NCBI GenBank assembly: GCA_937967455.1
Contig: CALCJK010000009.1
Span: 186,001 to 250,000 of the forward strand
DNA: 64,000 nt
Reading direction: 5' to 3'
From: an uncultured bacterium
GTDB lineage: Bacteria; Bacteroidota; Ignavibacteria; UBA10030; BY39
Below the pieces are notes generated by a model, which saw only the letters and a list, made by a program, of their open reading frames with translations, was not told the origin of the DNA and ran no database searches. A program made the position numbers and the translations under genes. Shown in pieces: positions 7,894 to 52,927 of the stretch; within the stretch, counting starts at the first letter, position 1, and each line of letters begins with the position of its first letter.

Positions 7894-8382
7894 ATGAAAG
7901 TCTGGAAATATGGTGACAATATTAATACAGATATGCTTTTTCCAGGTAAATATACATACACTTGTTCAAAACCGGAAGAAATTAAGCCACATCTGCTTGA
8001 AGATTTAGACGCTGAATTTTCTAATAATGTGCAACCTGGGGATATACTTATAGTCGGTAAAAATTTTGGATGTGGAAGCTCAAGAGAACAACCTACTGTT
8101 GGTTTAAAATTTGTCGGCATAGAAGCAATAATAGGCGAAAGTTTTTCCAGAATATTTTATCGCTCGGCTATAAATCAAGGTTTAATCTTAATTGAATGCC
8201 CAGATGCTGTAAAAGAATATACCAAAGATATGCCTGTAAAAATAGATTATCAGAAAAGTATAATTTTTATTGGTGATAAAACATTTAATTTCCCGAAGCT
8301 CCCACCCGAAATCCTTGCAATAAGAGATGCAGGAGGATTGCTGGAATATACAAGAAAAAAACTGCAGGAAAGAGGTAAATGA
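7894..8382 (+). CDS. LeuD/HacB-type hydro-lyase small subunit
   Basis: This 162-residue swivel-domain subunit has NINTDMLFPGKY near residues 9-20, GKNFGCGSSREQ and GESFSRIFYRSAIN. AAGGAG precedes the ATG. The specificity loop after PGKY reads YTYT, where homoaconitases usually have YLRT and isopropylmalate isomerases YL followed by hydrophobic residues. An unusual substrate is therefore possible. It works with the preceding large subunit. The stop is separated from the next start by a single base, consistent with tight coupling to the citrate-lyase genes. What is seen is the fold and pairing; the substrate is not determined. Confidence 0.78.
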   Translation: MKVWKYGDNINTDMLFPGKYTYTCSKPEEIKPHLLEDLDAEFSNNVQPGDILIVGKNFGCGSSREQPTVGLKFVGIEAIIGESFSRIFYRSAINQGLILIECPDAVKEYTKDMPVKIDYQKSIIFIGDKTFNFPKLPPEILAIRDAGGLLEYTRKKLQERGK

Positions 8383-8383
8383 T

Positions 8384-9589
8384 ATGATTAATATTGCTGA
8401 AGCAGGTCGTAAAGGTATAGATGTACGATCTGATTGTTATGTGTACATTGAACTAAAAAAATCTGGTGGATTAAAAATTGATATTGAAAGTAGAGTAGAT
8501 GTTCTGTATGGTAAATCAATAAGACGAATTGTAAAAAGTGGTTGTGAATTTTTTGGAATTAAAAATGCATTTGTTAAAGTTGAAGATAGCGGCGCTCTTC
8601 CTTTTGTCATAATGGCAAGATTGGAAGCTGCTGTTAAAAGACTTGGTAAAGGAGGGCGAAAAGAATTTTTACCTGAAATGCTCGACTGCGCAAAGTATCC
8701 AACTAAACGTGAAAGATTTAGAAGGTCGCGACTTTATTTACCAGGCAACGAACCAAAATATATGCTAAATGCAGGAATCCATAAACCTGATGGAATAATC
8801 CTTGATTTAGAAGATAGCGTTAATCCGAGCGAAAAGGATGCAGCAAGAATTTTGGTAAGAAATGCATTGAGACAGGTTGATTTTTACGGGTGTGAAAGGA
8901 TGGTTAGAATAAATCAAATTCCAAATGGCTTAGATGACCTGAATTATATAATACCTCATAATGTACATGTAGTTCTAATTCCAAAATGTGAACGAGGAGA
9001 ACAAATTAAACTTGTTAATAATCAAATTGCAAAAATCCTTAAAAGGAAAAAAAGTGTCGTTTACTTAATGCCAATAATTGAAAGTGCTCTTGGAATCATA
9101 AATGCATATGAGATTGCATCTGCTGCCGAAAATGTTGTAGCTTTAACAATTGGTCTTGAAGATTACACAGCTGATATTGGTACTCAACGAACTCTTGATG
9201 GTAAAGAAAGTTTCTTTGCACGGTCTATGATAGTAAATGCAGCAAAAGCTGCTGGTATACAAGCAATTGATACGGTATTCTCAGATGTGTCAGATATGGA
9301 TGGTTTGCGTTATAGTGTACTTGAAGCAAAATCCTTAGGTTTTGAAGGCAAGGGTTGTATTCATCCAAGGCAAATTCCAGTTATACATGAAGCGTTTGCA
9401 CCAGATGAAACTGAAATTGAGAAAGCCATCCGGATAGTTAAGGCTTATAAGGAAGCTGAATCAAAAGGCCTTTCTGTAGTTGCTGTTGGAAATAAAATGA
9501 TTGATCCTCCGGTAGTGAAGCGAGCTATTAGAACAATTGAGCTTGCTATTTCTACAGGTAAATTAGAAAAAAAATGGATGGAGCAATAG
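8384..9589 (+). CDS. citDE: citrate lyase acyl-carrier (CitD) and beta (CitE) fusion
   Basis: The 401-residue product joins two subunits that are separate in enterobacteria. Residues 1 to about 95 resemble CitD: AEAGRKG near the start, Ser16 in VRSDCYV as candidate prosthetic-group site, and DSGALPFVIMARLEAA at the end. From about residue 110 the CitE TIM barrel follows, with RSRLYLPGNEP, DGIILDLEDSV, MPIIESALG and GCIHPRQ. CitE releases oxaloacetate from the citryl-thioester. GAGGT at 8372-8376 sets ATG 8384; longer readings run into the previous gene. CitG/CitX/CitC functions needed to make and acetylate the prosthetic group are not in the window. Citramalate lyase is an alternative. Confidence 0.8.
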   Translation: MINIAEAGRKGIDVRSDCYVYIELKKSGGLKIDIESRVDVLYGKSIRRIVKSGCEFFGIKNAFVKVEDSGALPFVIMARLEAAVKRLGKGGRKEFLPEMLDCAKYPTKRERFRRSRLYLPGNEPKYMLNAGIHKPDGIILDLEDSVNPSEKDAARILVRNALRQVDFYGCERMVRINQIPNGLDDLNYIIPHNVHVVLIPKCERGEQIKLVNNQIAKILKRKKSVVYLMPIIESALGIINAYEIASAAENVVALTIGLEDYTADIGTQRTLDGKESFFARSMIVNAAKAAGIQAIDTVFSDVSDMDGLRYSVLEAKSLGFEGKGCIHPRQIPVIHEAFAPDETEIEKAIRIVKAYKEAESKGLSVVAVGNKMIDPPVVKRAIRTIELAISTGKLEKKWMEQ

Positions 9590-12208: not shown

Positions 12209-12371
12209 GAAATGCAAATCTTATCCAATGAATTTTCTAAGAAAAAGATGGGAGCTGGGCGTAAATCAAATTATCAGAATTTAGTGCCAAACCTGGCAAT
12301 CGTTATTTCTTATTTTGCTTTAAATGAAAATATACTTCCAATTCAAATTTTGGTGCGATAATTACTATTTA

Positions 12372-12387
12372 TGGTGTGTATTTAGCA
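12372..12387 (+). promoter_or_regulatory. weak sigma-54-like promoter candidate
   Basis: TGGTGTGTATTTAGCA keeps the GG and GC dinucleotides exactly ten bases apart, as sigma-54 promoters require, but deviates at several flanking positions. It lies about 125 bases upstream of the tetraheme cytochrome gene. It is of interest because a clear sigma-54 site and an NtrC-type activator occur just downstream. Confidence 0.25.
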
Positions 12388-12431
12388 AGGAAATAAAACA
12401 AAAAAAAGTTTTACTGGTTTTTTTAGAAAAT

Positions 12432-38512: not shown

Positions 38513-39511
38513 TTATTTTAGCACCATTGTTTTTACTATTGATTCAAATGCGGGTAAATAGTTATCTTTATGAGGATTGTACCAGTTCAATGTAATTCTA
38601 ATTACATTATCGTTCTTTACAATAAAATATGCTCTACTTTCAATGTCTTTCATAACCGAATAATTAATGAATAAAGCTTTTTCACCGCTTACTGTTATTT
38701 CTCCTTGTCCTGAAGTTTTCTTGTATTTTGCTTTATTTTGTTCAAAAACTTTGTCTACACCTAAACCCTGCGCTCCAAAAACATCAAATCTTATTGAACA
38801 ATCAACTCTGTCTGCTTGTAAAGATGTGGCAAAGTCGAACTTTCCCTTATCAACCGAGATGAAATTCAAGTTATCAGGATATTTTATTACAAAATATGGA
38901 GTTTCATATGTACTAATTGTTGGAGATGCAGTCCAACCCTCAGCTTTTTTTAATTGAGGTTCTGGTAGTCTGAATGAATTTAACATTGTGTCAAATACTG
39001 CAGTATATGCATTATACCAGTCTCCAAATCCTGAAAAACTCAAAGCATAAAACAAGGTATCAACCTGGAATAAAATTTTGTAACCCATTAGATTCATTTT
39101 AGTTGTAATTGGTATTGTGAAATTTAGTTTTAATGCAGGTTTATCCAAGATTGCGACTTGATTTTCGTTATCGATTCGACCACTCATTCTTATTTCTTCT
39201 CTTATCTCATTAACCATGTCATCGAAAGATTTACCTTCAAGATTTTTTACCTGTACCAAAACTTCGTTTCCTAGTTCACCAGGTTGTCCAGGTGAAATAA
39301 ATTTATCTTTGACTGATTGTGATTGGTAAAATTGCGCATTACCTGGTTGACCAAGTTGCATCCAGATTTCTGGATAATTTATACTGAACCCATAAAGCGC
39401 GTCTCTGTATACTTTATATTTCTCAATTTTAGGGGGTTCAATTTTTTTACCACATGAAAATGTCATTAAGATAATGAACAATATTATTGATGAAAGAAAT
39501 ATTTTTTTCAC
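38513..39511 (-). CDS. lipoprotein with PsbP/DcrB-like domain
   Basis: The 332-residue protein starts at GTG 39511 with an excellent AAAGGAGG eight bases upstream. Its lipoprotein signal ends in MTFSCGKK. The mature part contains two similar halves resembling the PsbP/DcrB fold: YGFSINYPEIWMQ near residue 43 and TPYFVIKYPDNLNF near residue 205. The second half ends ITLNWYNPHKDNYLPAFESIV. It is probably anchored in the periplasmic face of a membrane. No function can be assigned. Confidence 0.65.
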   Translation of the reverse strand: MKKIFLSSIILFIILMTFSCGKKIEPPKIEKYKVYRDALYGFSINYPEIWMQLGQPGNAQFYQSQSVKDKFISPGQPGELGNEVLVQVKNLEGKSFDDMVNEIREEIRMSGRIDNENQVAILDKPALKLNFTIPITTKMNLMGYKILFQVDTLFYALSFSGFGDWYNAYTAVFDTMLNSFRLPEPQLKKAEGWTASPTISTYETPYFVIKYPDNLNFISVDKGKFDFATSLQADRVDCSIRFDVFGAQGLGVDKVFEQNKAKYKKTSGQGEITVSGEKALFINYSVMKDIESRAYFIVKNDNVIRITLNWYNPHKDNYLPAFESIVKTMVLK

Positions 39512-39562
39512 AGTTAAAACCTCCTTTTTTTGTTATTGTTGAGTATAATTAAATTATTAATA

Positions 39563-40042
39563 TTAAGATTTTTCTTTAATGAGCTTTCTCACTTCTTGAA
39601 TTTGTTTTAAATGTAACTCACTATGTTCTGTATAAAATTTTAACATATCAAAGAATGTAACATCACCACGTTCTGAGTGTTTAGCTTTTTTTGCCCATAC
39701 CTCTGGTTGTAATTTGTAAATGATTTGATAGGTTCTGTTTCGCAGTAATCCATATATTAGCAGTGCTAATTCATCATCGATTTCACCATAATGAAATGTC
39801 TGTGCCCATAAGTTCTGGTTGTATGCCAAAAGTAACGGATTATCTTCTGTGGCTATTCTAAATAATCTCGTGACTGCCATTATTTCACTGTCGCAGAGGT
39901 GATTTATTATTTCTTTAATTGACCATTTATCTGGTGCTGGTTTGAAGGATTTTTCATCTTCTGTAAGATCTTTCACAGCTTCTTTTATTTTATCGTGAGT
40001 TGTTATGTATCTTTCTAAAATATCTTTTAAATTAATTTCCAT
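39563..40042 (-). CDS. DinB-family protein
   Basis: The 159-residue four-helix protein has the DinB/YfiT-like pattern: PDKWSIKEIINHLCDSE with the first His, and YTEHSELHLKQIQEV with the second and third His. Together these form the usual triad for a divalent metal. Such proteins include thiol-dependent transferases and many of unknown function. It is probably cytoplasmic. It lies between a lipoprotein gene and a DUF1573 gene on the same strand. Confidence 0.78.
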   Translation of the reverse strand: MEINLKDILERYITTHDKIKEAVKDLTEDEKSFKPAPDKWSIKEIINHLCDSEIMAVTRLFRIATEDNPLLLAYNQNLWAQTFHYGEIDDELALLIYGLLRNRTYQIIYKLQPEVWAKKAKHSERGDVTFFDMLKFYTEHSELHLKQIQEVRKLIKEKS

Positions 40043-40057
40043 AAAATAATATCCTAA

Positions 40058-40735
40058 TTATTTTCTTACAAAAGCAAAGAATCGGAGCGGAATTTGACTT
40101 TGCTTCTTGTTGTTTGTGTTAAATATTACATCTCCCTGTAATATACCTTCACTGATTGCTGTGAAAGTGACATTTATTTGTGTTGATTCCTGTGGCATTA
40201 GTTTTCGCTGCATTATATTTACTGATAAGCCTGTTATTTTGCTCTGAATGGATTTTATTTCAACTGGTTCTTGAGTAGTGTTTCGCACATTTATAACTTG
40301 TGTTGCAACAGAATCCGGTCTTAATTGTTGAAAGTAAATATAAGGTGGATCAAATTTTAATAATGATACTATGTTTGCAGTAAAACTAATTTGTAGATTG
40401 GGATTTGTGGCGTCGTTCGATGTTATTGTAACTGTTTTATGAACCTTCCCATCAAATCCTTTTGAATCAAAACCAATATTTAATGTGGCAGTTTTCTTTG
40501 GTGGTAAAACTTTGTCACTTAGTAAAGTCGCAGTACATCCACACGATGCCCTCACATTAGTTATTACAAGTGTGTCTTTACCTGAATTCTTTATGGTTAC
40601 AATTTTCTCAGCTTTAGAACCAGCCAACATATCCCCAAAATCGAATTCTTTGCCTCCAATTATCTCTATCTTAGGCTGACTTAATGAATAACTTATAATT
40701 GTGAAGATAAAAACTGAAGTTAAAAGAGATTTCAT
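40058..40735 (-). CDS. DUF1573 exported protein
   Basis: The 225-residue protein has a signal peptide ending near YSLSQ and two immunoglobulin-like domains. The first contains FDFGDMLAGSKAEKIVTIKN followed by ASCGCTA, the conserved SCGC motif of DUF1573. The second starts around residue 130 (PPYIYFQQLRPDS). The family is common in Bacteroidota and planctomycetes and probably has structural or envelope roles. AAAGGTG precedes the start. It is transcribed divergently from the MerR gene across a 280-base AT-rich gap. Confidence 0.8.
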   Translation of the reverse strand: MKSLLTSVFIFTIISYSLSQPKIEIIGGKEFDFGDMLAGSKAEKIVTIKNSGKDTLVITNVRASCGCTATLLSDKVLPPKKTATLNIGFDSKGFDGKVHKTVTITSNDATNPNLQISFTANIVSLLKFDPPYIYFQQLRPDSVATQVINVRNTTQEPVEIKSIQSKITGLSVNIMQRKLMPQESTQINVTFTAISEGILQGDVIFNTNNKKQSQIPLRFFAFVRK

Positions 40736-41015
40736 AATACACCTTTCTCAATGTTTATTATTTGCTTTAATTTTAATAAATTTTAATGATTAAAGCAAAA
40801 TTCTAAATTTTCTTAAAACCGTTAAATAAACTTTTGATTAATTTTTTTATAGAAGAATTTTAAAAGAATGTTTTTCTAATTTTTTGTAAAAAAAGTAAGT
40901 ATTTTACTAAAAATGATAATTCATTAATGAAAAGTTTTATTGAATCTTATTAATTTCATCAAATTATTAAAACTTTGGATGGTATAAAACTTGATAATTA
41001 TAACTTTAGATTTTT

Positions 41016-41474
41016 ATGTTAAAAGAAGTTGAACATACTAAAGAACAGTATTATACAATTGGAAAAGCTTCGCAGCTTGTGGGGGTATCAGTCCAGATGT
41101 TACGTTTGTACGAGGATGAAGGTTTGATTATCCCTTTTAAAAAGAAGTCTTTGCACAGATTATACTCATCTGAGGATATAGAACGACTAAAGTGTATAAG
41201 AGATATGATTCATAATGAAAAAATCAGTATTATTGGAATTAAACGGATGATGGCTTTAATACCATGCTGGGCAATTAAAAAATGCCCAGTTATAATTAGG
41301 GAAGGTTGCGAAGCTTTTAAAGATCATACAAAACCATGCTGGCTAAATAAAATAGATAATGAACTATGCAATAGTAACGAATGTAGAGGCTGTTTAGTCT
41401 ATAAATCTATAAAAAGCTGTTCAGCTTTAAAGCAATTATTGAATCAAATTGACAATTTAGTTATAGAAGGGTAG
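41016..41474 (+). CDS. MerR-type regulator with Cys-rich C-terminal domain
   Basis: The 152-residue protein begins with a MerR winged helix (YYTIGKASQLVGVSVQMLRLYEDEGL, residues 12-37) and HRLYSSEDIERLKCI. Instead of a long dimerisation coil it ends with eight cysteines in about 50 residues (84, 90, 98, 108, 118, 123, 126, 135). The arrangement suggests a metal, FeS or persulfide sensing site. It is 5 nt upstream of the molybdopterin reductase gene and probably controls that operon. No Shine-Dalgarno is visible, so the transcript may be leaderless or start close to the ATG. Confidence 0.82.
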   Translation: MLKEVEHTKEQYYTIGKASQLVGVSVQMLRLYEDEGLIIPFKKKSLHRLYSSEDIERLKCIRDMIHNEKISIIGIKRMMALIPCWAIKKCPVIIREGCEAFKDHTKPCWLNKIDNELCNSNECRGCLVYKSIKSCSALKQLLNQIDNLVIEG

Positions 41475-41479
41475 TAAAT

Positions 41480-43678
41480 ATGGATAATATATCAAGGCGG
41501 AAATTTTTAAAAATAAGTGCTACAACTATTTCTGCAGCAGCAACACTTGGTGCTGTTGGAAAAATTACTGCAGATGTAAATAAGATATCTGGAAATACTA
41601 CAAAAGGTTTAAGAAAGATTCCTACCTTCTGTGATATTTGTTTCTGGAAGTGTGGTGTAATTGCGTATGTAAAAGATGGTAAACTCTGGAAACTTGAAGG
41701 TAATCCACTTGATCCATTAAGTCGAGGTAGGTTATGTCCGCGTGGTACAGGTGGGGTTGGTTCTCATTATGATCCAGATAGGTTAAAGTCACCTCTGATT
41801 CGTAAAAACAATCGTGGTAAGGAGGAATGGGTAGCTGTTACATGGGATGAAGCATTCGATTATATAGCTCAGAAAATGCAAGATATTAAATCAAAATATG
41901 GAGCTGAATCAATTGCAATGTTTAGCCATGGAATTGGTGGAAATTTTTTAAAACATACACTCAAAGCTTTCGGAACAAATAATTTTGCAGCACCATCATT
42001 TGCTCAATGTCGCGGTCCGAGAGATGTTGGGTTTAAATTAACTTTTGGAGAAGATGTAAGTTCACCTGAAAGGACTGATATAAAAAATTCAAAATGTTTA
42101 GTATTAATTGGATATCATCTTGGTGAAAATATGCACAATTCGCAAGTTCAGGAATTTTCTGAAGCTATAAAGAAGGGTGCGTCGATTATCGTTGTGGATC
42201 CAAGATTTTCAATTGCTGCTAGTAAAGCAAAATATTATTTACCAATCAAACCTGGAACTGACCTAGCTCTTATACTTGCCTGGATGAATGTGATTGTGAA
42301 TGAGAATTTATACGACAGGGAATATATTGAGAAATATGGATTCGGTTTTGAGCAATTTAAAGCTGAAATATCCAATTATACTCCCGAGTGGGCTTATCCA
42401 GAAACCGGCATTGAACCTGATTTGATTCGCAACACTGCTTATGAAATGGCTAAATATAAACCAGCTACTCTTGTTCATCCTGGACGTCATGTTACATGGT
42501 ATGGAGATGACACTCAAAGAAGCAGAGCAATAGCACTTTTAAATGCACTACTGGGCAGCTGGGGAAGAAAAGGCGGATTTTACACACCTGTTAGTATGGA
42601 TCTTCCAGATTATCCTTATCCATCATATCCCAAACCAACTAAACCCAAAGTTGATAATCCGGATTTAAAATATCCTTTTGCAATAGAGACTGTGACAAAT
42701 GGAATTCGCGAGGCTACAATTTCTGGAAATCCATATCCTGTCAAAGGCTGGTTTGTTTATGCAACAAATTTAATTCATGCTTTGCCAAATGAAGATGAAA
42801 CGATCAGAGCAATTCAAAATTTAGATTTGCTGGTTGTAATTGATGTTATACCAAGTGAAATTGCAGGTTGGGCTGATGTTGTATTACCTGAATCAATTTA
42901 CCTTGAGAGATATGACGATTTAAATGTTGAATGGTTCAGAGAACCATTTATCTCTCTACGTCAACCCGTAGTCGACTCACCAAATGATCAAAAACCAAAT
43001 TGGTGGATCGCGAAAAAGCTTGCAGAAAAACTTGAGTTAAGTGAATTCTATCCTTGGGAAAATATTGAAGATTATTTAGAATACCGTTTAAGTGCTGGTG
43101 GATATGATTTTGAAGAACTAAAAAAGACAGGTATTATTAAAGGTTCACCACAACCAATATATTTTGAAACGGGTGTTCCTATTGAATTCCCAACACCCAG
43201 TGGCAAAATAGAGTTTTATTCTCTTCAGTTAGCTAAAGCAGGTTTTGATCCAGTACCAAAATATAAAAAACCAGAAGAAGGTCCACCTGGTTACTTCAGA
43301 TTGTTATATGGACGTGCACCAGTACATTCATTTAGCAGAACACAAACAAATCGTATTTTAATGGATATGTATAATGAAAATGAAGTTTGGATTAATAAAT
43401 TTATTGCAGATCGATTAGGTTTAAAATCTGGTGATTATGTTAAATTAAAAAATCAGGATGGAGTTGTGAGTAATAAGATAAAAGTTAAGGCAACAGAAAG
43501 AATTAGACCTGATTGTGTTTACATTGTTCATGGTTTTGGTCACAATTCAAAAATGCTAAAATTTGCATATAAAAAAGGTGCAAGTGATTCACAGTTGATA
43601 AAAAGGTATGTGATAGATCCATTAATGGGGGGTACTGGTATGAATGTGAATTTTGTAACAATTGAGATGGAGGTGTGA
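41480..43678 (+). CDS. psrA: polysulfide/thiosulfate reductase-like molybdopterin subunit (PsrA/PhsA)
   Basis: This 732-residue member of the DMSO-reductase family has a Tat signal (SRRKFLKISA) at residues 5-14. A [4Fe-4S] motif is formed by Cys51, Cys54, Cys58 and Cys86 (CDICFWKC, RLCPRG). Cys177 in FAQCRGPRD is the probable Mo or W ligand, as in Psr/Phs enzymes. Length and Tat export fit a periplasmic reductase using bis-MGD. It is followed by matching FeS and NrfD-like membrane subunits. Sulfur-related neighbours downstream favour thiosulfate or polysulfide; arsenate or other oxyanions cannot be excluded. Confidence 0.85.
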   Translation: MDNISRRKFLKISATTISAAATLGAVGKITADVNKISGNTTKGLRKIPTFCDICFWKCGVIAYVKDGKLWKLEGNPLDPLSRGRLCPRGTGGVGSHYDPDRLKSPLIRKNNRGKEEWVAVTWDEAFDYIAQKMQDIKSKYGAESIAMFSHGIGGNFLKHTLKAFGTNNFAAPSFAQCRGPRDVGFKLTFGEDVSSPERTDIKNSKCLVLIGYHLGENMHNSQVQEFSEAIKKGASIIVVDPRFSIAASKAKYYLPIKPGTDLALILAWMNVIVNENLYDREYIEKYGFGFEQFKAEISNYTPEWAYPETGIEPDLIRNTAYEMAKYKPATLVHPGRHVTWYGDDTQRSRAIALLNALLGSWGRKGGFYTPVSMDLPDYPYPSYPKPTKPKVDNPDLKYPFAIETVTNGIREATISGNPYPVKGWFVYATNLIHALPNEDETIRAIQNLDLLVVIDVIPSEIAGWADVVLPESIYLERYDDLNVEWFREPFISLRQPVVDSPNDQKPNWWIAKKLAEKLELSEFYPWENIEDYLEYRLSAGGYDFEELKKTGIIKGSPQPIYFETGVPIEFPTPSGKIEFYSLQLAKAGFDPVPKYKKPEEGPPGYFRLLYGRAPVHSFSRTQTNRILMDMYNENEVWINKFIADRLGLKSGDYVKLKNQDGVVSNKIKVKATERIRPDCVYIVHGFGHNSKMLKFAYKKGASDSQLIKRYVIDPLMGGTGMNVNFVTIEMEV

Positions 43679-43679
43679 T

Positions 43680-44219
43680 ATGGCAAGATTTGGAATGGTC
43701 ATAGATACAAAAAAATGTGTTGGTTGTATGGACTGTGTTGTTGCTTGTAAAACTGAGAATAATGTGCCTGAAGGTTTTAATCGCGATTGGATCGTTCAGG
43801 ATGCTCGTGGCAGTTTCCCAACTGTGAATTTAGAAATTAGAAGCGAAAGATGTAATCATTGTGACAATCCACCCTGTGTCTATTGTTGTCCAACAGGTGC
43901 TAGCCATATCCACAACCTGGGTGGTGTTGTGTTGGTTGATCATGAACTTTGTATTGGCTGTAAAGCTTGCATTGCATCCTGTCCTTATGATGCCCGATTT
44001 GTACATCCAGAGGGTTATGTTGATAAATGTACCTTTTGCATACATAGAGTTGAAGAAGGACTTGATCCAGCTTGTGTTTCTGTTTGCCCAACATATTGCA
44101 TGTATTTTGGTGATTTAGAGGATCCAAATAGTGAAGTGAATAAATTATTAAATTCTCGTAAACATCATGCAGTTTTGCCCGAAGCTGGTACAAAACCACA
44201 AATATTTTATTTGGAGTAA
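43680..44219 (+). CDS. psrB: PsrB-like four-cluster ferredoxin subunit
   Basis: The 179-residue protein has four [4Fe-4S] motifs: CVGCMDCVVACK, CNHCDNPPCVYCCP, CIGCKACIASCP and CTFCIHRVEEG with CVSVCP. GGAGG at 43668-43673 sets ATG 43680, right after the psrA stop; the earlier TTG reading is rejected. It has no signal or anchor and should be carried across the membrane by the Tat-exported PsrA partner. It transfers electrons from the NrfD-like subunit to the Mo site. Confidence 0.9.
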   Translation: MARFGMVIDTKKCVGCMDCVVACKTENNVPEGFNRDWIVQDARGSFPTVNLEIRSERCNHCDNPPCVYCCPTGASHIHNLGGVVLVDHELCIGCKACIASCPYDARFVHPEGYVDKCTFCIHRVEEGLDPACVSVCPTYCMYFGDLEDPNSEVNKLLNSRKHHAVLPEAGTKPQIFYLE

Positions 44220-44221
44220 TT

Positions 44222-45172
44222 ATGAACGAAATCACAAATACAAGAATGAACCCTGGAATTGATCCCTCTCTCTCAATTTGGAACTGGGAAATTCCAATTT
44301 ATCTATTTCTCGGCGGGATTGTTGCTGGTATGATGATAATTTCAGGTTATTTTCTTTTTAAAGGTAGAACTAAAGATGTTGAGTGTTCGTGCTTTTTAGT
44401 TCCGTTTATTAGTTTTATTTTATTGTCGTTCGGAATGTTAGCGCTCTTTCTGGATCTTGAACACAAAGCATATGTTTGGAGGGTTTACACAACGTTTAAG
44501 ATAAAATCTCCTATGTCATGGGGTTCCTGGATATTGATATTAATCTATCCAATTTTGATATTAAATATACTCATAAGGATACCAGATTTTCTTTCCAAAA
44601 AGTTGAAATTCTTAAAGAGTATATCTTTAAAAATTAATTCACATCCAACAGCAATAAAAAATATCGGTTTAGTGAGTATGATTTTTGGAGCGTTGCTCGG
44701 GATATATACAGGTGTACTGTTAAGTTCGTTAGGTGCTCGTCCTTTGTGGAATAATTCAACTTTATGGATACTATTTTTATTGTCAGGTCTCTCATCTGCA
44801 GCAGCGTTTGTTCATCTAATTGCTAAGAGCAAATATGAATCACACCTACTCGCAAAGGCAGATAATGTTTTTTTATCTTTGGAACTGATTGTACTAGTCT
44901 TATTTTTAATTGGATTACTCACTTCAACACAGGTACATATCAGTGCGGCTGAATTTTTGATTAGTGGAAATTATGCACCACTTTTTTGGGTGTTTGTAAT
45001 TGGCTTAGGAATTATAATTCCACTTATAATCCAGTTGTATGCAGTAAATAACAAAATAAAGCACCAACCTGTTGCTCCAATTATGGTAATTATTGGTGGA
45101 TTGATACTACGTTTTGTTATCGTAAATGCAGGTCAGGCTAGTCACTGGTTTAATGCAGGAATGTTAAAATAA
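44222..45172 (+). CDS. psrC: PsrC/NrfD-like membrane quinol subunit
   Basis: The 316-residue protein has about eight membrane helices, beginning WEIPIYLFLGGIVAGMM, which is the usual PsrC/NrfD first helix. It contains LDLEHKAYVWRVY with acidic and His residues near the quinone site. Together with PsrA and PsrB it forms a menaquinol-linked reductase. The start is 2 nt after psrB. It differs from the HybB-like protein at 14874 in being shorter and in having its catalytic partner present. Confidence 0.88.
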   Translation: MNEITNTRMNPGIDPSLSIWNWEIPIYLFLGGIVAGMMIISGYFLFKGRTKDVECSCFLVPFISFILLSFGMLALFLDLEHKAYVWRVYTTFKIKSPMSWGSWILILIYPILILNILIRIPDFLSKKLKFLKSISLKINSHPTAIKNIGLVSMIFGALLGIYTGVLLSSLGARPLWNNSTLWILFLLSGLSSAAAFVHLIAKSKYESHLLAKADNVFLSLELIVLVLFLIGLLTSTQVHISAAEFLISGNYAPLFWVFVIGLGIIIPLIIQLYAVNNKIKHQPVAPIMVIIGGLILRFVIVNAGQASHWFNAGMLK

Positions 45173-45187
45173 AGAAGGATAATATAT

Positions 45188-45730
45188 ATGAATCATCAAG
45201 AATCTCAAATTAATTTTCAACCCAAACCTTATATGAATCCATATCTTGCCGGGATTGGTTTGGGTTTAGTTTTGCTCCTTTCTTTTGTAATCATGGGAAG
45301 AGGACTTGGTGCATCTGGCGCGTTCTCATCATTGTTAAGTGCAGGTATGGAAAAAATCTCTCCTGAACATGTTAAATCAAACGAATTTTATTTGGAGTAT
45401 TTGGGTGATGGAACAACAAGTCCACTTAAAGATTGGTTGGTTTTTGAAGTAATTGGTGTTTTTGCAGGTGGGCTACTTTCAGGAGCTTTAGCACATAGAA
45501 TAAAAAAAGATATAGAGAAAGGTCCACGCATTTCTAATTTTGGTCGCTTAGCTTTTGCCTTTATTGGTGGTGCAATGATGGGCTTTGGGGCAAAATTAGC
45601 GCGCGGATGTACAAGCGGCCAGGCGCTTACAGGTGGTGCATTATTGAACGTTGGTAGCTGGGCATTTATGCTATGTGTATTTGCTGGGGCTTATGCATTT
45701 GCTTATTTTATGAGGAGGCAATGGAGATGA
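45188..45730 (+). CDS. YeeE/YedE-family transporter, first half-size protein
   Basis: The 180-residue membrane protein carries the YeeE/TsuA hallmark GAKLARGCTSGQALTGGALL near its C-terminal half, with the conserved Cys used for thiosulfate relay. It is about half the length of the fused thiosulfate importer, and the next gene supplies the other half. AAGGAT precedes the ATG. Its place after psrABC suggests handling of thiosulfate or another sulfane compound. The periplasmic loop between its first two helices is relatively long. Confidence 0.82.
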   Translation: MNHQESQINFQPKPYMNPYLAGIGLGLVLLLSFVIMGRGLGASGAFSSLLSAGMEKISPEHVKSNEFYLEYLGDGTTSPLKDWLVFEVIGVFAGGLLSGALAHRIKKDIEKGPRISNFGRLAFAFIGGAMMGFGAKLARGCTSGQALTGGALLNVGSWAFMLCVFAGAYAFAYFMRRQWR

Positions 45731-46311
45731 ACGCACCATTTTTTAAATATGGCTATTTTGGAGATGACCTTAGTTTAGTCGTGGCTTTTATAATTGGAAT
45801 TGGTTTCGGCTTCTTCCTCGAAAGAGCTGGATTCGGAAGTGCTAAAAAACTCACTGCTCAATTTTACTTCACAGATATGAGCGTATTCAAAGTTATGTTC
45901 TCAGCAATCGTAACTGCAATGATTGGTTTGTATTACCTTGGAGTTCTTGGATTGTTAAATCTATCACTAGTTTATCTTACACCAACTTATTTAATACCTC
46001 AGATTATTGGCGGCTTAATACTTGGTATCGGATTTGTAATTGGTGGATACTGCCCAGGTACTTCATGTGTAGCTGTCTCAACTGGTAAAATTGATGCCCT
46101 TGTATTCCTAATTGGTGTAATAGGTGGTATATTTGTATTTGGTGAAGTTTTCCCATTATTAAAAGTTTTTTATTATTCAAGTAATATGGGAAATTTAACA
46201 TTACCTCAATTGTTTAATATCCCATATGGACTTGTGGTATTTTTGGTCGTATTAATGGCAATTGGTGGTTTCATGGGTGCAGAGTATGTTGAGAAAAAAA
46301 TGAAAAAGTAG
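45727..46311 (+). CDS. YeeE/YedE-family transporter, second half-size protein
   Basis: The 194-residue membrane protein contains FGFFLERAGFGSAKKLT and GGYCPGTSCVAVSTGK, the second set of conserved Cys positions of the YeeE/TsuA family. The start at 45727 forms an ATGA overlap with the first half and lies eight bases after AGGAGG. The other in-frame ATG, at 45721, is too close to that site. Both halves are expected to assemble as one sulfur-compound channel. Confidence 0.82.
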   Translation: MNAPFFKYGYFGDDLSLVVAFIIGIGFGFFLERAGFGSAKKLTAQFYFTDMSVFKVMFSAIVTAMIGLYYLGVLGLLNLSLVYLTPTYLIPQIIGGLILGIGFVIGGYCPGTSCVAVSTGKIDALVFLIGVIGGIFVFGEVFPLLKVFYYSSNMGNLTLPQLFNIPYGLVVFLVVLMAIGGFMGAEYVEKKMKK

Positions 46312-46324
46312 GAGAAAATTAGAT

Positions 46325-46978
46325 ATGAAAAATCTTTTTGGGCAACTAAGTCTAAATCAAAAAATTGCTGTGGTAACATTGCTATTAGGGTTGATAGCAA
46401 TCTTTGCTGGTAATCCTTACCAAGGAAATTACACTAGAATTGATGCAAAAGAAATAGCCCTAATAGTTCAGAAAGAATTAGATCATATTACAGCTGAAGA
46501 ATTAGCTGATTGGATTATAAAAGAAAAATCAGATTTTCGTTTGATAGACCTACGAAGCGAAAATGAATTTTCAGAGTATCATATTCCAAAAGCAGAGAAC
46601 ATTCAATTGATAGATTTAAATAATTATACATTTCTTCCAACTGAAAAGATAATTTTATATTCAGAAGGTGGTATACACTCAGCTCAAGCTTGGTTTCTTA
46701 TGATTGCAAGGGGATATAAAAATGTCTATATGCTTAAAGGTGGTCTTGATGAATGGAAAGAAAAAATTTTATTTCCTATAATATCAGAAAATGCAACCCC
46801 TGACGAAATCAAAAATTTTGAAAGAATTAAAGAAGTTAGTAGATACTTCGGTGGATCTCCACAAACAGGGAAAATTGAAGATATTAGAGTAAAGAAAGAA
46901 TTACCAAAATTAGAAATGCCAGCTCAGGGTTCACCCCAGACTGGTACACAAAAGAAGAAAAAGAAAGAAGGTTGTTAA
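46325..46978 (+). CDS. membrane-anchored rhodanese-like protein with Ser at the active site
   Basis: The 217-residue protein has an N-terminal membrane helix (about residues 13-29) and a rhodanese domain: FRLIDLRSENEFSEYHIPKA, then MLKGGLDEWK. The catalytic loop, normally Cys followed by XXGXRS, reads YSEGGIHSA with Ser113 in place of Cys. The only cysteine is the last residue. It therefore probably cannot form the usual persulfide. It may bind sulfane sulfur or regulate the pathway. It is 13 nt after the second YeeE gene, in the same operon. Confidence 0.8.
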   Translation: MKNLFGQLSLNQKIAVVTLLLGLIAIFAGNPYQGNYTRIDAKEIALIVQKELDHITAEELADWIIKEKSDFRLIDLRSENEFSEYHIPKAENIQLIDLNNYTFLPTEKIILYSEGGIHSAQAWFLMIARGYKNVYMLKGGLDEWKEKILFPIISENATPDEIKNFERIKEVSRYFGGSPQTGKIEDIRVKKELPKLEMPAQGSPQTGTQKKKKKEGC

Positions 46979-47012
46979 AGTTACGGTTATTTTTAGCAAA
47001 ATATTAAAGAGT

Positions 47013-47504
47013 ATGAAATACTTAAAAATTTTCTTATTTATATTACTTGTTATTGGATGCTCTAAAGAAACTAAAGATAGATTCCAACCTTTCGAGGACT
47101 TAAATGGTATGAAGCTTACCAAAAAAATTTCAGGAAAAGAAGCTCAGACAATGATTAATAAACTACATGGGAAATCTGTAACTCCAAATGTAAGTGAAGT
47201 AATTTTTTATAAAAGCGAAAAAGGTGAAGCTGTTTTATATATTTCCGGGTATCCAGACTCAACTGGTGCAAAAAATGATTATTATAAAATGGTTTCATTA
47301 ATCCAAAATGGGAACGAAGTTTTTGGACACTTTCACGAATTTAATATCGATAATCAAAAACTCTCAATGTGTCTCGGACTGGGGCAAGCACATTATTTTT
47401 TCTATAATAATCACAACTTGTTCTGGTTGAGTACAAATTATCAAATTGCCCAATCCACAGTTGTTGATCTGCTAAATAAATTGAAAAATGGACGATACGA
47501 ATGA
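47013..47504 (+). CDS. small lipoprotein, unknown
   Basis: The 163-residue protein has a lipoprotein signal with lipobox VIGCSK (Cys at residue 16). The mature part is mixed alpha/beta, with ISGKEAQTMINKLHGK, VIFYKSEKGEAVLYISGYPD and a His-rich stretch GHFHEFNI. No family was recognised. It follows the rhodanese gene by 34 bases and probably belongs to the sulfur operon, though the link is only positional. Confidence 0.6.
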   Translation: MKYLKIFLFILLVIGCSKETKDRFQPFEDLNGMKLTKKISGKEAQTMINKLHGKSVTPNVSEVIFYKSEKGEAVLYISGYPDSTGAKNDYYKMVSLIQNGNEVFGHFHEFNIDNQKLSMCLGLGQAHYFFYNNHNLFWLSTNYQIAQSTVVDLLNKLKNGRYE

Positions 47505-47576
47505 TATAAATATCAAAATATATAATTATCTGCAGGCTCTTTATTAATTGTATTTAATTTATTATCGGCTGAATAA

Positions 47577-48197
47577 ATGTTTAAAAATGTAGCAGGAATT
47601 ATCTTGGCGGGAGGGAAAAGCAAGAGAATGGGGCAGGAAAAAGCATTAATTAAAATTGGTGATTTAACTGCAATAGAAATTGTTTATGAAAAATTAAAAT
47701 CAATCTTTGAAAATGTTTTTATTATAGCAAATGATCCTTCAAAATATTCTTTTCTTGATATTAAAGTTTATGAGGATATATTTAAAGATGTAGGTCCTCT
47801 TGCAGGTATGCATTCAGGATTACGTCATTCTTCCAGTGAAAATAATTTTTTTATTTCTTGTGATATGGTCTTGATGAGAAAAGAAATAATTGAATATATT
47901 GTAAATTAACCAACTAATAAGATAATTAAAGTTCCCAGAGTTAATGAAGTATTGCAACCATTGTGTGCTGTATATTCAAGGAATTGCATTTCAATCATAG
48001 AACAACTAATTAGGGAAAGTATAAAATCTAAACAACCCCAATTAAATAGTCCTTACAAGTTGATTGAAAAACAGGATACTGAAATAATAGAAGTGGGTAA
48101 TCTCCTTTCTAATTTTCCGGATGCTTTTTTAAGTATGAATAGTGATCTAGATTATCAAAGGGTTTTGCAAATATTACGTACTCATCAAAACACCTAA
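47577..48197 (+). pseudogene. mobA: mobA-like molybdenum cofactor guanylyltransferase, split by one in-frame stop
   Basis: The frame encodes a MobA homologue: GIILAGGKSKRMGQEKALI at the N-terminus, YEDIFKDVGPLAGMHSGL, ISCDMVLM, then after a TAA at 47907-47909 the same frame continues with KVPRVNEVLQPLCAVYSRN and a normal C-terminus to 48197. Only one codon interrupts about 206 codons, so the lesion is very recent or a sequencing error. MobA makes the MGD form of the cofactor needed by PsrA-type enzymes, so its place here is logical. The 3' end overlaps the convergent ptb gene by 24 bases. Confidence 0.75.
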
Positions 48198-49076
48198 TGC
48201 AATAGTACGAACTTTTTCCTCACATTTATCAGCTCGTGATGGGATTAGTATTGGGATTTTGCCTCCTACTATTACTTGTGCGTGAGGTAAATTCGCAAAA
48301 TACTGTGTGCTTTTTGCTAAACTATTTGCAGCTTCAATATTGGGAGCTACAATTATATCTGCTTTACCAGCGACTTCGGATTTTATGTTTTTTTCAATTA
48401 CTGCCTCTTCACTTACACATAGATCCAATGCTAATGGACCATCAATTATGCATCCCTTAATTTCCCCTTCTCTGTTCATCTTTGTTATCTCTGCAGCGTC
48501 AACCGAGGATTGTAACTTTGGGTTTACTTTCTCTGATGCTGAAAGCATAGCAACTTTTGGTATTTCAATTCCCAGTGCTTTTGCTACTTTTATTGCATTT
48601 TCAATCAGTCCAATTTTTGCTTGAAGATCTGGATTAAGATTCAAACCACCATCAGTGATCATTATAAGCTTTTTTTCCTTTTTCTTTGGAAATTCAAAAA
48701 TAAAAACGTCACTAAATAGCCTTCCGGTTCGCATGTTGTTTGCTGGATCAAATATGGCTTTCATAAGGGTTGATGTATCAACAGAACCTTTCATTAATAT
48801 GGAACAGGCACCATTGTTTACTAAGTTTATAGACTTTTTAATTGTCTCAACAGTATCTGTTTCGTGAATTATATTAAAATCGAAAGTGCAGTTTAGTTCC
48901 TTTAAGATTGGAAGAATAATATTCTTATCACCCACAAGGTAAAAATTAGCCAGTTTAATTTTGGTTGCTTCGAGAACTGCGGTGAGGGTTTCTTTATTGT
49001 GAGGTTGGACAACAACAACATTTTTGTTCTTTTTTTCAAGTGCTTTTTGTAAGAGTTCTTCAAGATTTTTTATCAT
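48174..49076 (-). CDS. ptb: phosphate butyryltransferase-like acyltransferase
   Basis: The 300-residue protein of the Pta/Ptb family has NNMRTGRLFSDV, GGLNLNPDLQAKIGLIENAI, VAMLSASEKVNPKLQSS and DGPLALDLCVSE, which are the conserved blocks of phosphate acetyl/butyryltransferases. It interconverts an acyl-CoA and acyl phosphate. It lies directly before butyrate kinase in the transcription order buk then ptb. In this order the pair could gain ATP from butyryl-CoA, isobutyryl-CoA or a related acyl-CoA, or activate the acid. No crotonase or acyl-CoA dehydrogenase genes are nearby. Confidence 0.86.
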   Translation of the reverse strand: MIKNLEELLQKALEKKNKNVVVVQPHNKETLTAVLEATKIKLANFYLVGDKNIILPILKELNCTFDFNIIHETDTVETIKKSINLVNNGACSILMKGSVDTSTLMKAIFDPANNMRTGRLFSDVFIFEFPKKKEKKLIMITDGGLNLNPDLQAKIGLIENAIKVAKALGIEIPKVAMLSASEKVNPKLQSSVDAAEITKMNREGEIKGCIIDGPLALDLCVSEEAVIEKNIKSEVAGKADIIVAPNIEAANSLAKSTQYFANLPHAQVIVGGKIPILIPSRADKCEEKVRTIALGVLMST

Positions 49077-49090
49077 AGTGTTTTGAATTT

Positions 49091-50152
49091 TTAATATTCT
49101 TTGGTTTTTTCAATGCTTCTGAGGATTCTGAGGGCTGCTTTAGCAAGTGCTTTCAACTCATCGTCGCCTGGGAAGATTAAAACTTTAGAAATAAAACTGA
49201 CTCTTTCTGTGATCCATTTTGTCAGAAATTCTGATTTAGCAAGACCGCCAGTTAAAATAACTGCATCAACTTTTCCAGATAATACAGTGGACATAGCACC
49301 AATTTCTTTTGCAATCTGATAAGCCATTGCTTGGAAAACCTCGAGTGCTTTATTATCGCCGTTTTTAATTCTGCTTTCAACTTCTTCAGCGCTATTTGTA
49401 CCAAGATATGCAACAAGTCCACCATTACCCATTACAAATTTTCTAAGTTGTTGTTCAGTATATTCACCAGAAAAAGCTATTGTTATAAATGGTTGAAGTG
49501 GTAAGCCACCGGTTCTTTCTGGAGAAAAAGGCCCATCACTGGATGCATCATTAACATCAATTATTTTACCATTTTTAATTGGTGCTACTGAAATTCCACC
49601 ACCCATATGTGCTACCACAAAGGAAGAATTATTGTAATCGATTGTTAATTTTTCAGCAGCATTTCTTGCAGCTTCGTGTAAACTGAGTGCGTGAGATAAA
49701 CTACGGCGTTCAATTCTTGGATGACCTGAATAACGGGCTAATGGTTCGAACTCATCAACTGAAACGGGATCCACAACAAAGGCTCTCGAGTTATATTCTT
49801 TGGCTAATCTGTCGACCAATGCGCAACCAAGGTTGGAGGCATGTTCACCCTGTAAATTTGCACGAGCATCCTGTAGCATTCTTTCGTTAACTTCATACGT
49901 TCCCCCCTCAACAGATCGAAACAAACCACCAATTGAAATAACAGCGTTAAAATCATTTATATCATTATTCTTAATCCAGTTGCTAATTGTTCGATATCTG
50001 AAATCGAATTGATCCCAAATTTTTTCGTGCTTTTTAATTTCTTCTGTGGGGTGTTTTAATGTTTCGGAAAGGTGAATTTGTTCATCATAAAATAAAGCAA
50101 TTTTAGTTGAGGTTGATCCTGGATTTACTACAAGGATCTTATAAAATTCCAT
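49091..50152 (-). CDS. buk: butyrate kinase-like acyl kinase
   Basis: The 353-residue protein belongs to the acetokinase family in its Buk branch: KILVVNPGSTSTKIALF at the start, GHPRIERRSLSHALSLHEAAR, VVAHMGGGISVAP, DGPFSPERTGGLP and ILTGGLAKSEF. It catalyses acyl phosphate + ADP to and from acid + ATP. AAGGA precedes the ATG at 50152, and the ptb-like gene follows after 14 bases. The substrate may be butyrate, isobutyrate or another short acid. Confidence 0.88.
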   Translation of the reverse strand: MEFYKILVVNPGSTSTKIALFYDEQIHLSETLKHPTEEIKKHEKIWDQFDFRYRTISNWIKNNDINDFNAVISIGGLFRSVEGGTYEVNERMLQDARANLQGEHASNLGCALVDRLAKEYNSRAFVVDPVSVDEFEPLARYSGHPRIERRSLSHALSLHEAARNAAEKLTIDYNNSSFVVAHMGGGISVAPIKNGKIIDVNDASSDGPFSPERTGGLPLQPFITIAFSGEYTEQQLRKFVMGNGGLVAYLGTNSAEEVESRIKNGDNKALEVFQAMAYQIAKEIGAMSTVLSGKVDAVILTGGLAKSEFLTKWITERVSFISKVLIFPGDDELKALAKAALRILRSIEKTKEY

Positions 50153-50200
50153 AAATTTGAGGTCCTTTTTTATGAAAATGTAAAAAAAGTTCTGTTAATT

Positions 50201-52927
50201 TTAAAATTCCATTAGTAAACCAATTCTTAGACTCCTGGAAAAACCTGCAAATGTGTAATCATTTTTTGACATATCATTAAGCCCAAGTAAAACTGGTATT
50301 TCATCTGCACGATCTTGTGAGACAAGCAATTTTATTGCATCTTCAACATTGTATTTGGTTAGTTTTTCATAAAAAAGGTTTTTGGAATTTAGTAAATTTT
50401 TTATTTCTGCATATGATACGAGGTTAATTCCTTTCCAAATTCTAAAATTATAAAGAAGTTTTAAATCAAGTTGTTGTTTCCATGCATCATTTTTTATTGG
50501 ATTTATAGAATATAATATATCAGGTGATTTTACTAAAATATTTTTTTCTTTGATTGCTCTAAGAATGAGATTGATTCCAAACGGGAAGTTATCATAGAAT
50601 AAATTTACTAATAGTGAATGTGAATCGTCAAGGTCGTCGTAGTATGGAAACTTGAACTTGCTATGTGTTTTATATGCGTATGAATAATTAAATACTCCTT
50701 GGATATTTTTCCATTTTGGTGTATTTGCGGATAACTCAAACCCTAAAGTTTCGATTTGATATGAGTTTAAAATATAAGTTGCTAAACCTAGATCGGTTTG
50801 AATGTATTGAGGTTCTAAATTCCGCATTGTTTTTCGATTATAAAGTGTAAGATTAATTATTACATCGTTTTTTGTTTGTTTACTTAAACCTATATCAAAT
50901 TGTGTTGTATACAGAGGTTTAACCCCACTATATTTTATATTGTTAATAAAATATCGAGTTTTATAGATACTTCGAATTCTGTCAGAACTCATATAAATCA
51001 GATCGTAATCAGGTAAATAAGTAAAGGTTTGATAATTAAGAAATAAAATCGATGTATATTTTGGTAAATTGAATAAAATACCAAATCGTGGATTAATTGA
51101 TACGGATGGTTTCGTTTTAACAAAACTATCGTCATCAATTGAGGATGGATTACCCCAGCCATCAGATGGAACTGGTAAATCAGGGTGTAGCATTTTAAAA
51201 TTTTCTGGTGTTCCATATAATCTTGTATTCTTACTATTAGTTAAATCGCTTATATCCTTTAACTTATAATCGTTCGGATCCCAGATATCCATTCTAAAAC
51301 CAATGTTTAATTTAATAAGATCAAAATGAATTTTATCCTGAATGAAAAGTCCACCATAAATTGGTTTTTTAGGGCCTTCACTCCTTTTTGAGTGATTATA
51401 TTTTGAGTAATTTATTTCTCTTCCAAAATAGTCATATCCATATGAATCGATACCTCTCGCTATGAATTCGTCGAATACTTTTTGTAGTTGGGTGTGGTCT
51501 AAAAAATCAGGATTTTTTATAATTATATTTTTCAAAGTATCATTCATCTGTGCAAGAGAAAGTGGATATATCATATATTTTCTTATCCATTGTGTATTGA
51601 ATTCAGTTCCTAATGCAAAATTGTGATTATTGTACTTGTAGATAACATCGCCTTTAAATTGGAGTATCTGGTTTTTACTGAAGCTCAGGTAATCATAAAT
51701 TCTTCCGGGAAGCGCAAATTCTCCAATATATGGATCAAAAGGTACCCTTAGTCCAGGTTGTATGTAATGGAAGTAATTAGCAAAGAGAGGATTTTGATTA
51801 TAATCTCCATAATCGAAGTAGTTTTTTCTATGCTTTGGATGGGAATTCTCAAAATAAATGGATGAGTAGCTAATGCCTGCATTAAAAGACAAATTTGGTT
51901 TTACATTCCAGGATGATTTTATATAGAATATATCACTGTTAGAAATTTGTAGAGGGTGATTAAATGAGTTCATAAATGTATATGATGGTATAACCATTCT
52001 GTTCTTCATTCTTGTTGAAAACCCGCTGATAATGAATTTTAAGTCGTCTAAATTTAATGTAATTTTTTCGTTCCATAAGTAATAAATTTTTGCAGCATCA
52101 GGAATTTGACCAATTTTTACTTTATTCCAGCGTGGTTCATCAAGCATTAATAATTTTGCTGTTTCATTATATTCTTTACTACCAACTTCCTCTGGAGTAA
52201 ATACTCTTCTGTGTGCCATTGATTGAATGTAGTTAATCGTATTAAATTGGAATATAGGCCAGATGTTGTTAGAAACATTTCTTAGTTTCTCAGAATAATA
52301 ACTTTGGTGTGGATTTCTTTCAAAGGAATATTCAAACGAACCATAAAATTGTATTAAATTTGGATTATTTGGTATTAATGGCCCACCAATTGAAAAATTT
52401 GTTAATTCCGTTCCAGTGCATCTCAAATTCTTAAATCCATTAAATAAGAAATTATCTGTGACATATTCGAAACTACCGAAATATATTGGTCTTGTAGAAG
52501 TTGAAATTAAATTTATTCCACCATTTGAGAGTCTTGAATATGAAATATCATTTTCACCTGTTATCAATTGTAATTTTTCGATTATATTTTTATTAATTAT
52601 CAAAGGGGAATTACCTTTATAATCCTTGATTGAAAATCCATCTAAATTGAATTCTAAAAATTCTAATTTATCTCTTCTATACGAAGGGACAAATTCTCTT
52701 TCATTTATTGTGTAATCGGATATTGTTGTAACAATTTCAGAATAATTTCTAATGGGTAATCGAAATATTTCCTCTTTTGTTAGAATTTGGTTTTTATGGA
52801 GAGATTCTAATTTCTTTTCTGGAATTATATCGATTTCATTTTGTGTGGAATCGATCTGCACAGCATATAATAAATTTGTAACTAGAAAAAAAGTTGTGAT
52901 GATAATAAAATATTTTAATTTTTCCAT
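50201..52927 (-). CDS. TonB-dependent receptor-like outer-membrane protein
   Basis: The 908-residue protein has a signal peptide ending near LLYAV. A plug-like domain follows (LTKEEIFRLPIRNYSEIV, FNLDGFSIKD, LINKNIIEKLQLITGENDISYSRLSNGGINLIST), then a long barrel ending RSLRIGLLMEF with terminal Phe. It lacks the carboxypeptidase-like N-terminal domain present in the receptor at 56055. AAGGAGCGG precedes the ATG. Cargo is unknown. A 19-codon ORF with a perfect Shine-Dalgarno lies about 130 bases upstream on the same strand. Confidence 0.8.
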   Translation of the reverse strand: MEKLKYFIIITTFFLVTNLLYAVQIDSTQNEIDIIPEKKLESLHKNQILTKEEIFRLPIRNYSEIVTTISDYTINEREFVPSYRRDKLEFLEFNLDGFSIKDYKGNSPLIINKNIIEKLQLITGENDISYSRLSNGGINLISTSTRPIYFGSFEYVTDNFLFNGFKNLRCTGTELTNFSIGGPLIPNNPNLIQFYGSFEYSFERNPHQSYYSEKLRNVSNNIWPIFQFNTINYIQSMAHRRVFTPEEVGSKEYNETAKLLMLDEPRWNKVKIGQIPDAAKIYYLWNEKITLNLDDLKFIISGFSTRMKNRMVIPSYTFMNSFNHPLQISNSDIFYIKSSWNVKPNLSFNAGISYSSIYFENSHPKHRKNYFDYGDYNQNPLFANYFHYIQPGLRVPFDPYIGEFALPGRIYDYLSFSKNQILQFKGDVIYKYNNHNFALGTEFNTQWIRKYMIYPLSLAQMNDTLKNIIIKNPDFLDHTQLQKVFDEFIARGIDSYGYDYFGREINYSKYNHSKRSEGPKKPIYGGLFIQDKIHFDLIKLNIGFRMDIWDPNDYKLKDISDLTNSKNTRLYGTPENFKMLHPDLPVPSDGWGNPSSIDDDSFVKTKPSVSINPRFGILFNLPKYTSILFLNYQTFTYLPDYDLIYMSSDRIRSIYKTRYFINNIKYSGVKPLYTTQFDIGLSKQTKNDVIINLTLYNRKTMRNLEPQYIQTDLGLATYILNSYQIETLGFELSANTPKWKNIQGVFNYSYAYKTHSKFKFPYYDDLDDSHSLLVNLFYDNFPFGINLILRAIKEKNILVKSPDILYSINPIKNDAWKQQLDLKLLYNFRIWKGINLVSYAEIKNLLNSKNLFYEKLTKYNVEDAIKLLVSQDRADEIPVLLGLNDMSKNDYTFAGFSRSLRIGLLMEF

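What the first reader, a model, noticed from the sequence alone, without database searches (positions are those of the whole stretch)
47577..48197. mobA interrupted by a single in-frame TAA beside a Mo-enzyme operon
Both parts align with MobA in one unbroken frame across the stop. A working MobA is needed for the bis-MGD of PsrA. Either the assembly is wrong, the lesion is a fresh mutation with another mobA elsewhere, or the two parts or read-through still give function.
Basis: partly seen in the sequence, partly recalled or inferred. Interest (0 to 1): 0.55.

Follow-up and report, generated by a model that had tools for sequence, protein, structure and literature searches.

The report
Freshly broken mobA left by lost operon
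A gene for the last step of making a molybdenum cofactor carries one stop codon; it is the last leftover of a cofactor-gene operon that this bacterium has lost, and another intact copy elsewhere in the genome probably does the job, so this is ordinary gene decay.

Summary
The stop is real in the assembly: TAA at 47907-47909 interrupts an otherwise open 206-codon mobA. The one congener held has an open mobA at the same place, but with four more genes (moaA, moaC-moaB fusion, moeA, MOSC) directly before it; in the window all four are gone, leaving perhaps the first 15 codons of moaA. The same genome has a second, open mobA on contig C35, directly behind its only moeA. Neither half of the window copy evolved faster than the congener's gene, so the lesion is young or an assembly error; no other of 54 homologous window genes has a convincing internal stop. 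Best reading: redundant native mobA, recently dead, replaced by the C35 copy. Unsettled: no reads; moaA and moaC are absent from the assembly; C35 is a mosaic whose first 1.5 kb is 97% identical to an Ignavibacterium locus, by recombination or misassembly. Novelty low.

The parts
41480..43678 (+). psrA/phsA-like molybdopterin oxidoreductase with an N-terminal twin-arginine motif (SRRKFLK)
   Evidence: NCBIfam PhsA 513 bits, below the 694 cut-off; 88% to congener, dN/dS 0.05; motif read from the sequence
43662..44219 (+). psrB-like iron-sulfur subunit
   Evidence: NCBIfam NrfC/ArrB/DsrO/TtrB-like models; 94% to congener
44222..45172 (+). psrC/nrfD-like membrane subunit
   Evidence: NCBIfam NrfD 117 bits, below cut-off 347.6; 83% to congener
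45188..46311 (+). two overlapping YeeE/YedE-like membrane proteins
   Evidence: NCBIfam TsuA/YedE models, all below cut-off
46325..46978 (+). rhodanese-domain protein
   Evidence: NCBIfam rhodanese models, below cut-off
47013..47504 (+). 163-aa protein, lipoprotein-like by eye; last intact gene before the loss
   Evidence: 62% to the G001 gene that overlaps moaA there; no Pfam match
47488..47532 (+). probable scar: about the first 15 codons of moaA, overlapping the end of the 163-aa gene
   Evidence: 23 of 42 bases match G001 moaA in the anchored register, p 0.0016 by shuffling; free local alignment not significant
47533..47576 (+). junction: place of the lost moaA-moaCB-moeA-MOSC; origin of these bases unknown
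   Evidence: no significant match to MOSC end or the lost genes
47577..47909 (+). mobA, first 110 codons and the premature TAA (47907-47909)
47910..48197 (+). mobA, remaining 95 codons, frame intact to its own stop
48174..50152 (-). convergent gene pair that flanks mobA here and in relatives; named phosphate butyryltransferase/butyrate kinase-like from memory, not by a call
   Evidence: same neighbours in G001, G003 and G004

Best explanation
The window holds the native mobA of this Ignavibacteria lineage, the last gene of an operon psrABC - yeeE x2 - rhodanese - lipoprotein - moaA - moaCB - moeA - MOSC - mobA. In this genome moaA to MOSC have been lost (shown against the congener). The orphaned mobA then, or at about the same time, took a nonsense mutation; a 110-aa product would lack the C-terminal part that is conserved in the alignment, so it is probably dead (inferred). 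A second MobA, of another Ignavibacteria lineage and directly behind moeA on contig C35, is open and probably supplies the guanylyltransferase step for the PsrA-like enzyme (inferred). The rest of a replacement cluster (moaA, moaC, MOSC) may lie in the assembly gap before C35 (inferred, not shown).
For: Congener G001 and family member G003 have the full operon with an open mobA and the same right-hand neighbours; G004 has moaA-moaCB-moeA-MOSC-mobA and those neighbours. The window mobA groups with G001's (100/100) and inside the family clade (99/95); the C35 mobA lies outside it. Open second mobA at C35:1490-2095, and the only moeA in the genome directly before it. C35:5064-16339 is collinear with G001:C3 at 74-77% where it matches, so that part of C35 belongs to the genome. 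Changes unique to window versus G001: 10 v 7 in the N part, 6 v 8 in the C part; window branch 0.30 v 0.43: no sign of long decay. Simulated neutral decay: P(no further stop) 0.04 at 0.1 substitutions per site. psrA, psrB, psrC dN/dS 0.03-0.07, so the Mo enzyme is still kept.
Against: No reads could be examined. moaA and moaC are absent from all 39 contigs, so a complete cofactor pathway is not shown in this genome. The first ~1.5 kb of C35 (moeA and the 5' end of mobA) is 97.1% identical to an Ignavibacterium contig and identity then drops to 59.7%, which a chimeric contig would also give. The moaA scar is weak without the anchored register. The loss and the stop cannot be dated against each other.
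Confidence: 0.7

Rival explanations
1. The TAA is a base error of the assembly and the orphan mobA is intact and functional. The loss of the four upstream genes still stands.
For: A single substitution is the only defect in a frame with no acceleration in either half.
Against: Of 54 homologous, non-overlapping window genes (57 kb) only two show a stop, and the other (8246-9586) has its stops in a start extended upstream over the preceding gene, so stops by error are not common here. The mobA has also lost its overlap with MOSC, present in the congener.
Confidence: 0.15
2. C35 is a chimeric contig: moeA and the 5' end of its mobA come from a co-occurring Ignavibacterium, and this bacterium's own moa and moe genes are either unassembled or truly lost, so the Mo enzymes may lack cofactor.
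For: Identity to L092 falls from 97.1% to 59.7% within the conserved 5' end of mobA, while L092 and L082 are 87.1% and 82.8% alike in the same parts; moaA and moaC absent.
Against: The mobA after position 1546 is not from that Ignavibacterium and is joined to sequence collinear with the congener from 5064 on, so a second mobA body remains; psrABC is under strong purifying selection. Recombination gives the same pattern.
Confidence: 0.2
3. The two pieces, or read-through of the stop, still give a working MobA.
For: Both halves are conserved.
Against: No ATG, GTG or TTG between the stop and 47952; a TTG start there loses residues 111-125. The same conservation is expected of a fresh lesion.
Confidence: 0.04

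Closest known systems
MobA, molybdenum cofactor guanylyltransferase (NCBIfam NF001457/TIGR02665; solved: 2e8b, E. coli 1fr9/1e5k)
   Same: A profile of the five MobAs matches 2e8b along its whole length (E 1.3e-33) and E. coli MobA over profile positions 3-100; LAGGKS-RMG and CD motifs kept
   Different: The window copy is interrupted at codon 111; read through it scores 123 bits against the NF001457 cut-off of 164, as low as the congener's open gene at 118
Recent pseudogene with a second intact copy (gene replacement after loss of an operon)
   Same: Loss of neighbouring pathway genes, single lesion, second open copy in the genome
   Different: The replacement pathway is not seen complete in the assembly
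MocA-like cytidylyltransferase on C19 beside an XdhC-like gene (XdhC named from memory)
   Same: Same Pfam family PF12804
   Different: Scores best to DVU_1551-type and MocA models (179 and 157 bits, both under cut-off), TIGR02665 MobA only 59; not a likely substitute for MobA

Membership tests
MobA | MobA-like NTP transferase sequence over the whole length | tested here: met
   PF12804 110.9 bits, residues 7-147; NF001457 residues 6-200; read through the stop as X
MobA | N-terminal nucleotide-binding motif and CD motif (motif roles recalled) | tested here: met
   LAGGKSKRMG and SCD aligned with four open MobAs
MobA | score over the curated equivalog cut-off | tested here: not met
   123 v 164 bits for NF001457; but the open relatives also fall short: 118 (G001), 135 (C35)
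MobA | one uninterrupted reading frame | tested here: not met
   TAA at codon 111
MobA | guanylyltransferase activity | not testable with these tools
   needs expression
pseudogene | orthologue open in relatives at the same place | tested here: met
   open in G001, G003 and G004 with the same right-hand neighbours
pseudogene | relaxed constraint since the lesion | tested here: not met
   unique changes 10 v 7 and 6 v 8; dN/dS not raised; means young, erroneous, or still functional
pseudogene | lesion present in the reads | not testable with these tools
   no reads held

The most novel reading that the evidence does not exclude
This bacterium keeps a PsrABC enzyme and two xanthine-dehydrogenase-type proteins in use although it has no moaA, moaC or moaE: it would take molybdopterin or its precursor from neighbours and finish it with MoeA and the C35 MobA alone, so the broken native mobA is one step in a move to cofactor scavenging.
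Probability: 0.06. Interest if true: 0.7.

Novelty: new member of a known kind. Interest (0 to 1): 0.22.

Why it matters
It shows a native molybdenum-cofactor gene set dissolving in a bacterium that still keeps the enzyme needing the cofactor, caught with one relic gene barely damaged. As a biological principle this is ordinary redundancy and decay. It is a warning against reading a lone stop codon without its lost neighbours. The side observation that most of the Ignavibacteria-type genomes examined lack a recognisable MoaE is of wider interest.

Tried and rejected
Tried: (1) a named close strain: genome contigs with the 110-aa piece found nothing; with alignment A2 it gave 45 loci, of which only L060, the G001 contig, is known to be from the genus. 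The genus holds 2 genomes, the family 5, own genome included. (2) The left neighbour of C35 by synteny with G001:C3:60000-79900: no match that would place it. (3) An Rfam element (for example a Moco riboswitch) at 39500-50200: none at the gathering score. (4) A terminator or promoter at the junction: promoter-like sites no more than in shuffles, no terminator. (5) MOSC remains before mobA: none significant. (6) A paper on mobA pseudogenes with replacement: 10 papers hold the three terms mobA, pseudogene and molybdenum cofactor (listing seen); of these I read passages of PMC6147048 and PMC2700814 only, and those passages do not describe this case.

Rejected: a change of genetic code (one TAA among intact genes); C19 as the replacement MobA (MocA-like); a generally error-ridden assembly. 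In one search, 43 of the 45 loci entered the tree; L061 was left out as the same contig as L046, and L100 because its match falls in two frames. In one search the count of 54 genes uses at least 60% identity and over 90% coverage; weaker ones were dropped, among them the decayed transporter at 12230-12393. YN00 failed; dS values near or above 1 are saturated, so the dN/dS ratios are rough.

Full report
Observation. The frame 47577-48197 is a mobA of 206 codons with one TAA at codon 111 and no other defect. Both halves match MobA models separately, and the congener's protein aligns across the stop at 61%. The stop lies directly behind an invariant Asn (N110 in the alignment of five MobAs) in a column that varies among the other four.

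The wider event. In congener G001 (contig QOQV01000001.1, Ignavibacteriae bacterium BY39) and in G003 the order is psrA-psrB-psrC-yeeE-yeeE-rhodanese-(lipoprotein-like gene in G001)-moaA-moaCB-moeA-MOSC-mobA, followed by two convergent genes; G004 has moaA-moaCB-moeA-MOSC-mobA and the same right-hand neighbours behind a different left side. The window has the same genes on both sides, but moaA, moaCB, moeA and MOSC are missing. The 64-kb window is otherwise closely collinear with G001. Behind the lipoprotein-like gene about 15 codons in the register of moaA remain (23 of 42 bases, anchored p 0.0016); a free local alignment is not significant, so I call this scar probable. What lies between it and mobA has no recognised source.

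Where the function went. Of the 10 places in the genome that match PF12804, three score over 100 bits: the window's, one on C19 that scores best to MocA-type models, and one on C35 that is open and MobA-like. The C35 mobA overlaps the end of the genome's only moeA. This moeA-mobA order is the common one among the 45 named loci: 26 of 45 have moeA directly before mobA, 18 of them with MOSC before moeA (my count by eye; some loci end too soon to tell). It differs from the order of the window's own family. In the tree the window copy joins G001 (100/100) and the family (99/95), and the C35 copy does not. C35 is part of this genome at least from 5064 on.

The mosaic. C35:303-1546 is 97.1% identical to an uncultured Ignavibacterium contig (L092, CALHAB010000126.1) and 1547-2095 only 59.7%, while L092 and its relative L082 are 87.1% and 82.8% alike in the same two parts. 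The break is inside the conserved 5' end of mobA. Either recombination brought in a foreign moeA, or the contig is chimeric. The left end of C35 is a repeat that also stands between MOSC and moeA in L092, so moaA, moaC and MOSC may be hidden in the gap; moaA and moaC are absent from the 39 contigs.

Age. Window and G001 have similar numbers of unique changes in both halves of mobA (10 v 7, 6 v 8); the window's dN/dS against G003 (0.15 N part, 0.25 C part) is no higher than G001's (0.19, 0.55). In a simulation of neutral decay, the chance of no further stop falls to 0.20 at 0.05 and 0.04 at 0.1 substitutions per site; with an assumed 0.1 indel per substitution the chance of no further lesion is 0.05 at 0.03. 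Synonymous divergence from G001 is near or above 1, so the stop is recent on that scale, or an error. The Mo enzyme is still constrained: dN/dS 0.05, 0.03 and 0.07 for psrA, psrB and psrC.

Does the enzyme need MobA? The abstract of PMC9103625 (outline and abstract read) says the GMP nucleotides are crucial for inserting bis-MGD into apo-TorA of E. coli; that the same holds for this PsrA is inference. The genome also has two xanthine-dehydrogenase-type proteins (PF02738) that would need molybdopterin. PMC6147048 (passages read) reports several hundred organisms with molybdoproteins but no complete cofactor pathway, so a genome in this state is not unprecedented.

Function of the pieces. A 110-aa product would lack the C-terminal part, which holds several invariant columns. 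The next usual start is a TTG at 47952, codon 126. Split function or read-through is therefore unlikely.

Verdict. A confirmed oddity with an ordinary explanation: the last relic of a lost operon, freshly inactivated or mis-sequenced, with an open second mobA in the same genome.

Noticed in passing
G000-G004; [quoted passage not shown] two repeat G001 and G004), while 11 of 14 control genomes have it. Absence of MoaE is reported for acetogens (PMC5039349) and Geobacter metallireducens (PMC2700814), passages read.
   Followed up: partly
L018:1-2095 (G000:C35): Sharp mosaic break inside the 5' end of mobA: 97% then 60% identity to an Ignavibacterium contig; a partial duplicate of the moeA start and a repeat precede moeA in both.
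   Followed up: partly
L100:6964-7606 and L088:14727-15283 (minus strand): Two more mobA copies in other Ignavibacteria are frameshifted, both just before the conserved CD motif next to an A-rich run; L088 also has an open copy at 8001.
   Followed up: partly
window 12230-12393: Frameshifted 3' remnant of a 297-aa membrane-transporter-like gene (named by eye) that is open in G001: another decayed gene in the window.
   Followed up: partly
window 50201-52927 against L020:3701-4816: A 908-aa outer-membrane-receptor-like gene (named by eye) stands in the window where G001 has a different 371-aa gene.
   Followed up: no
L018:18893-19359: The right end of C35 is a repeat found at 93-98% on four other contigs of the genome, probably the cause of the assembly break.
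   Followed up: no
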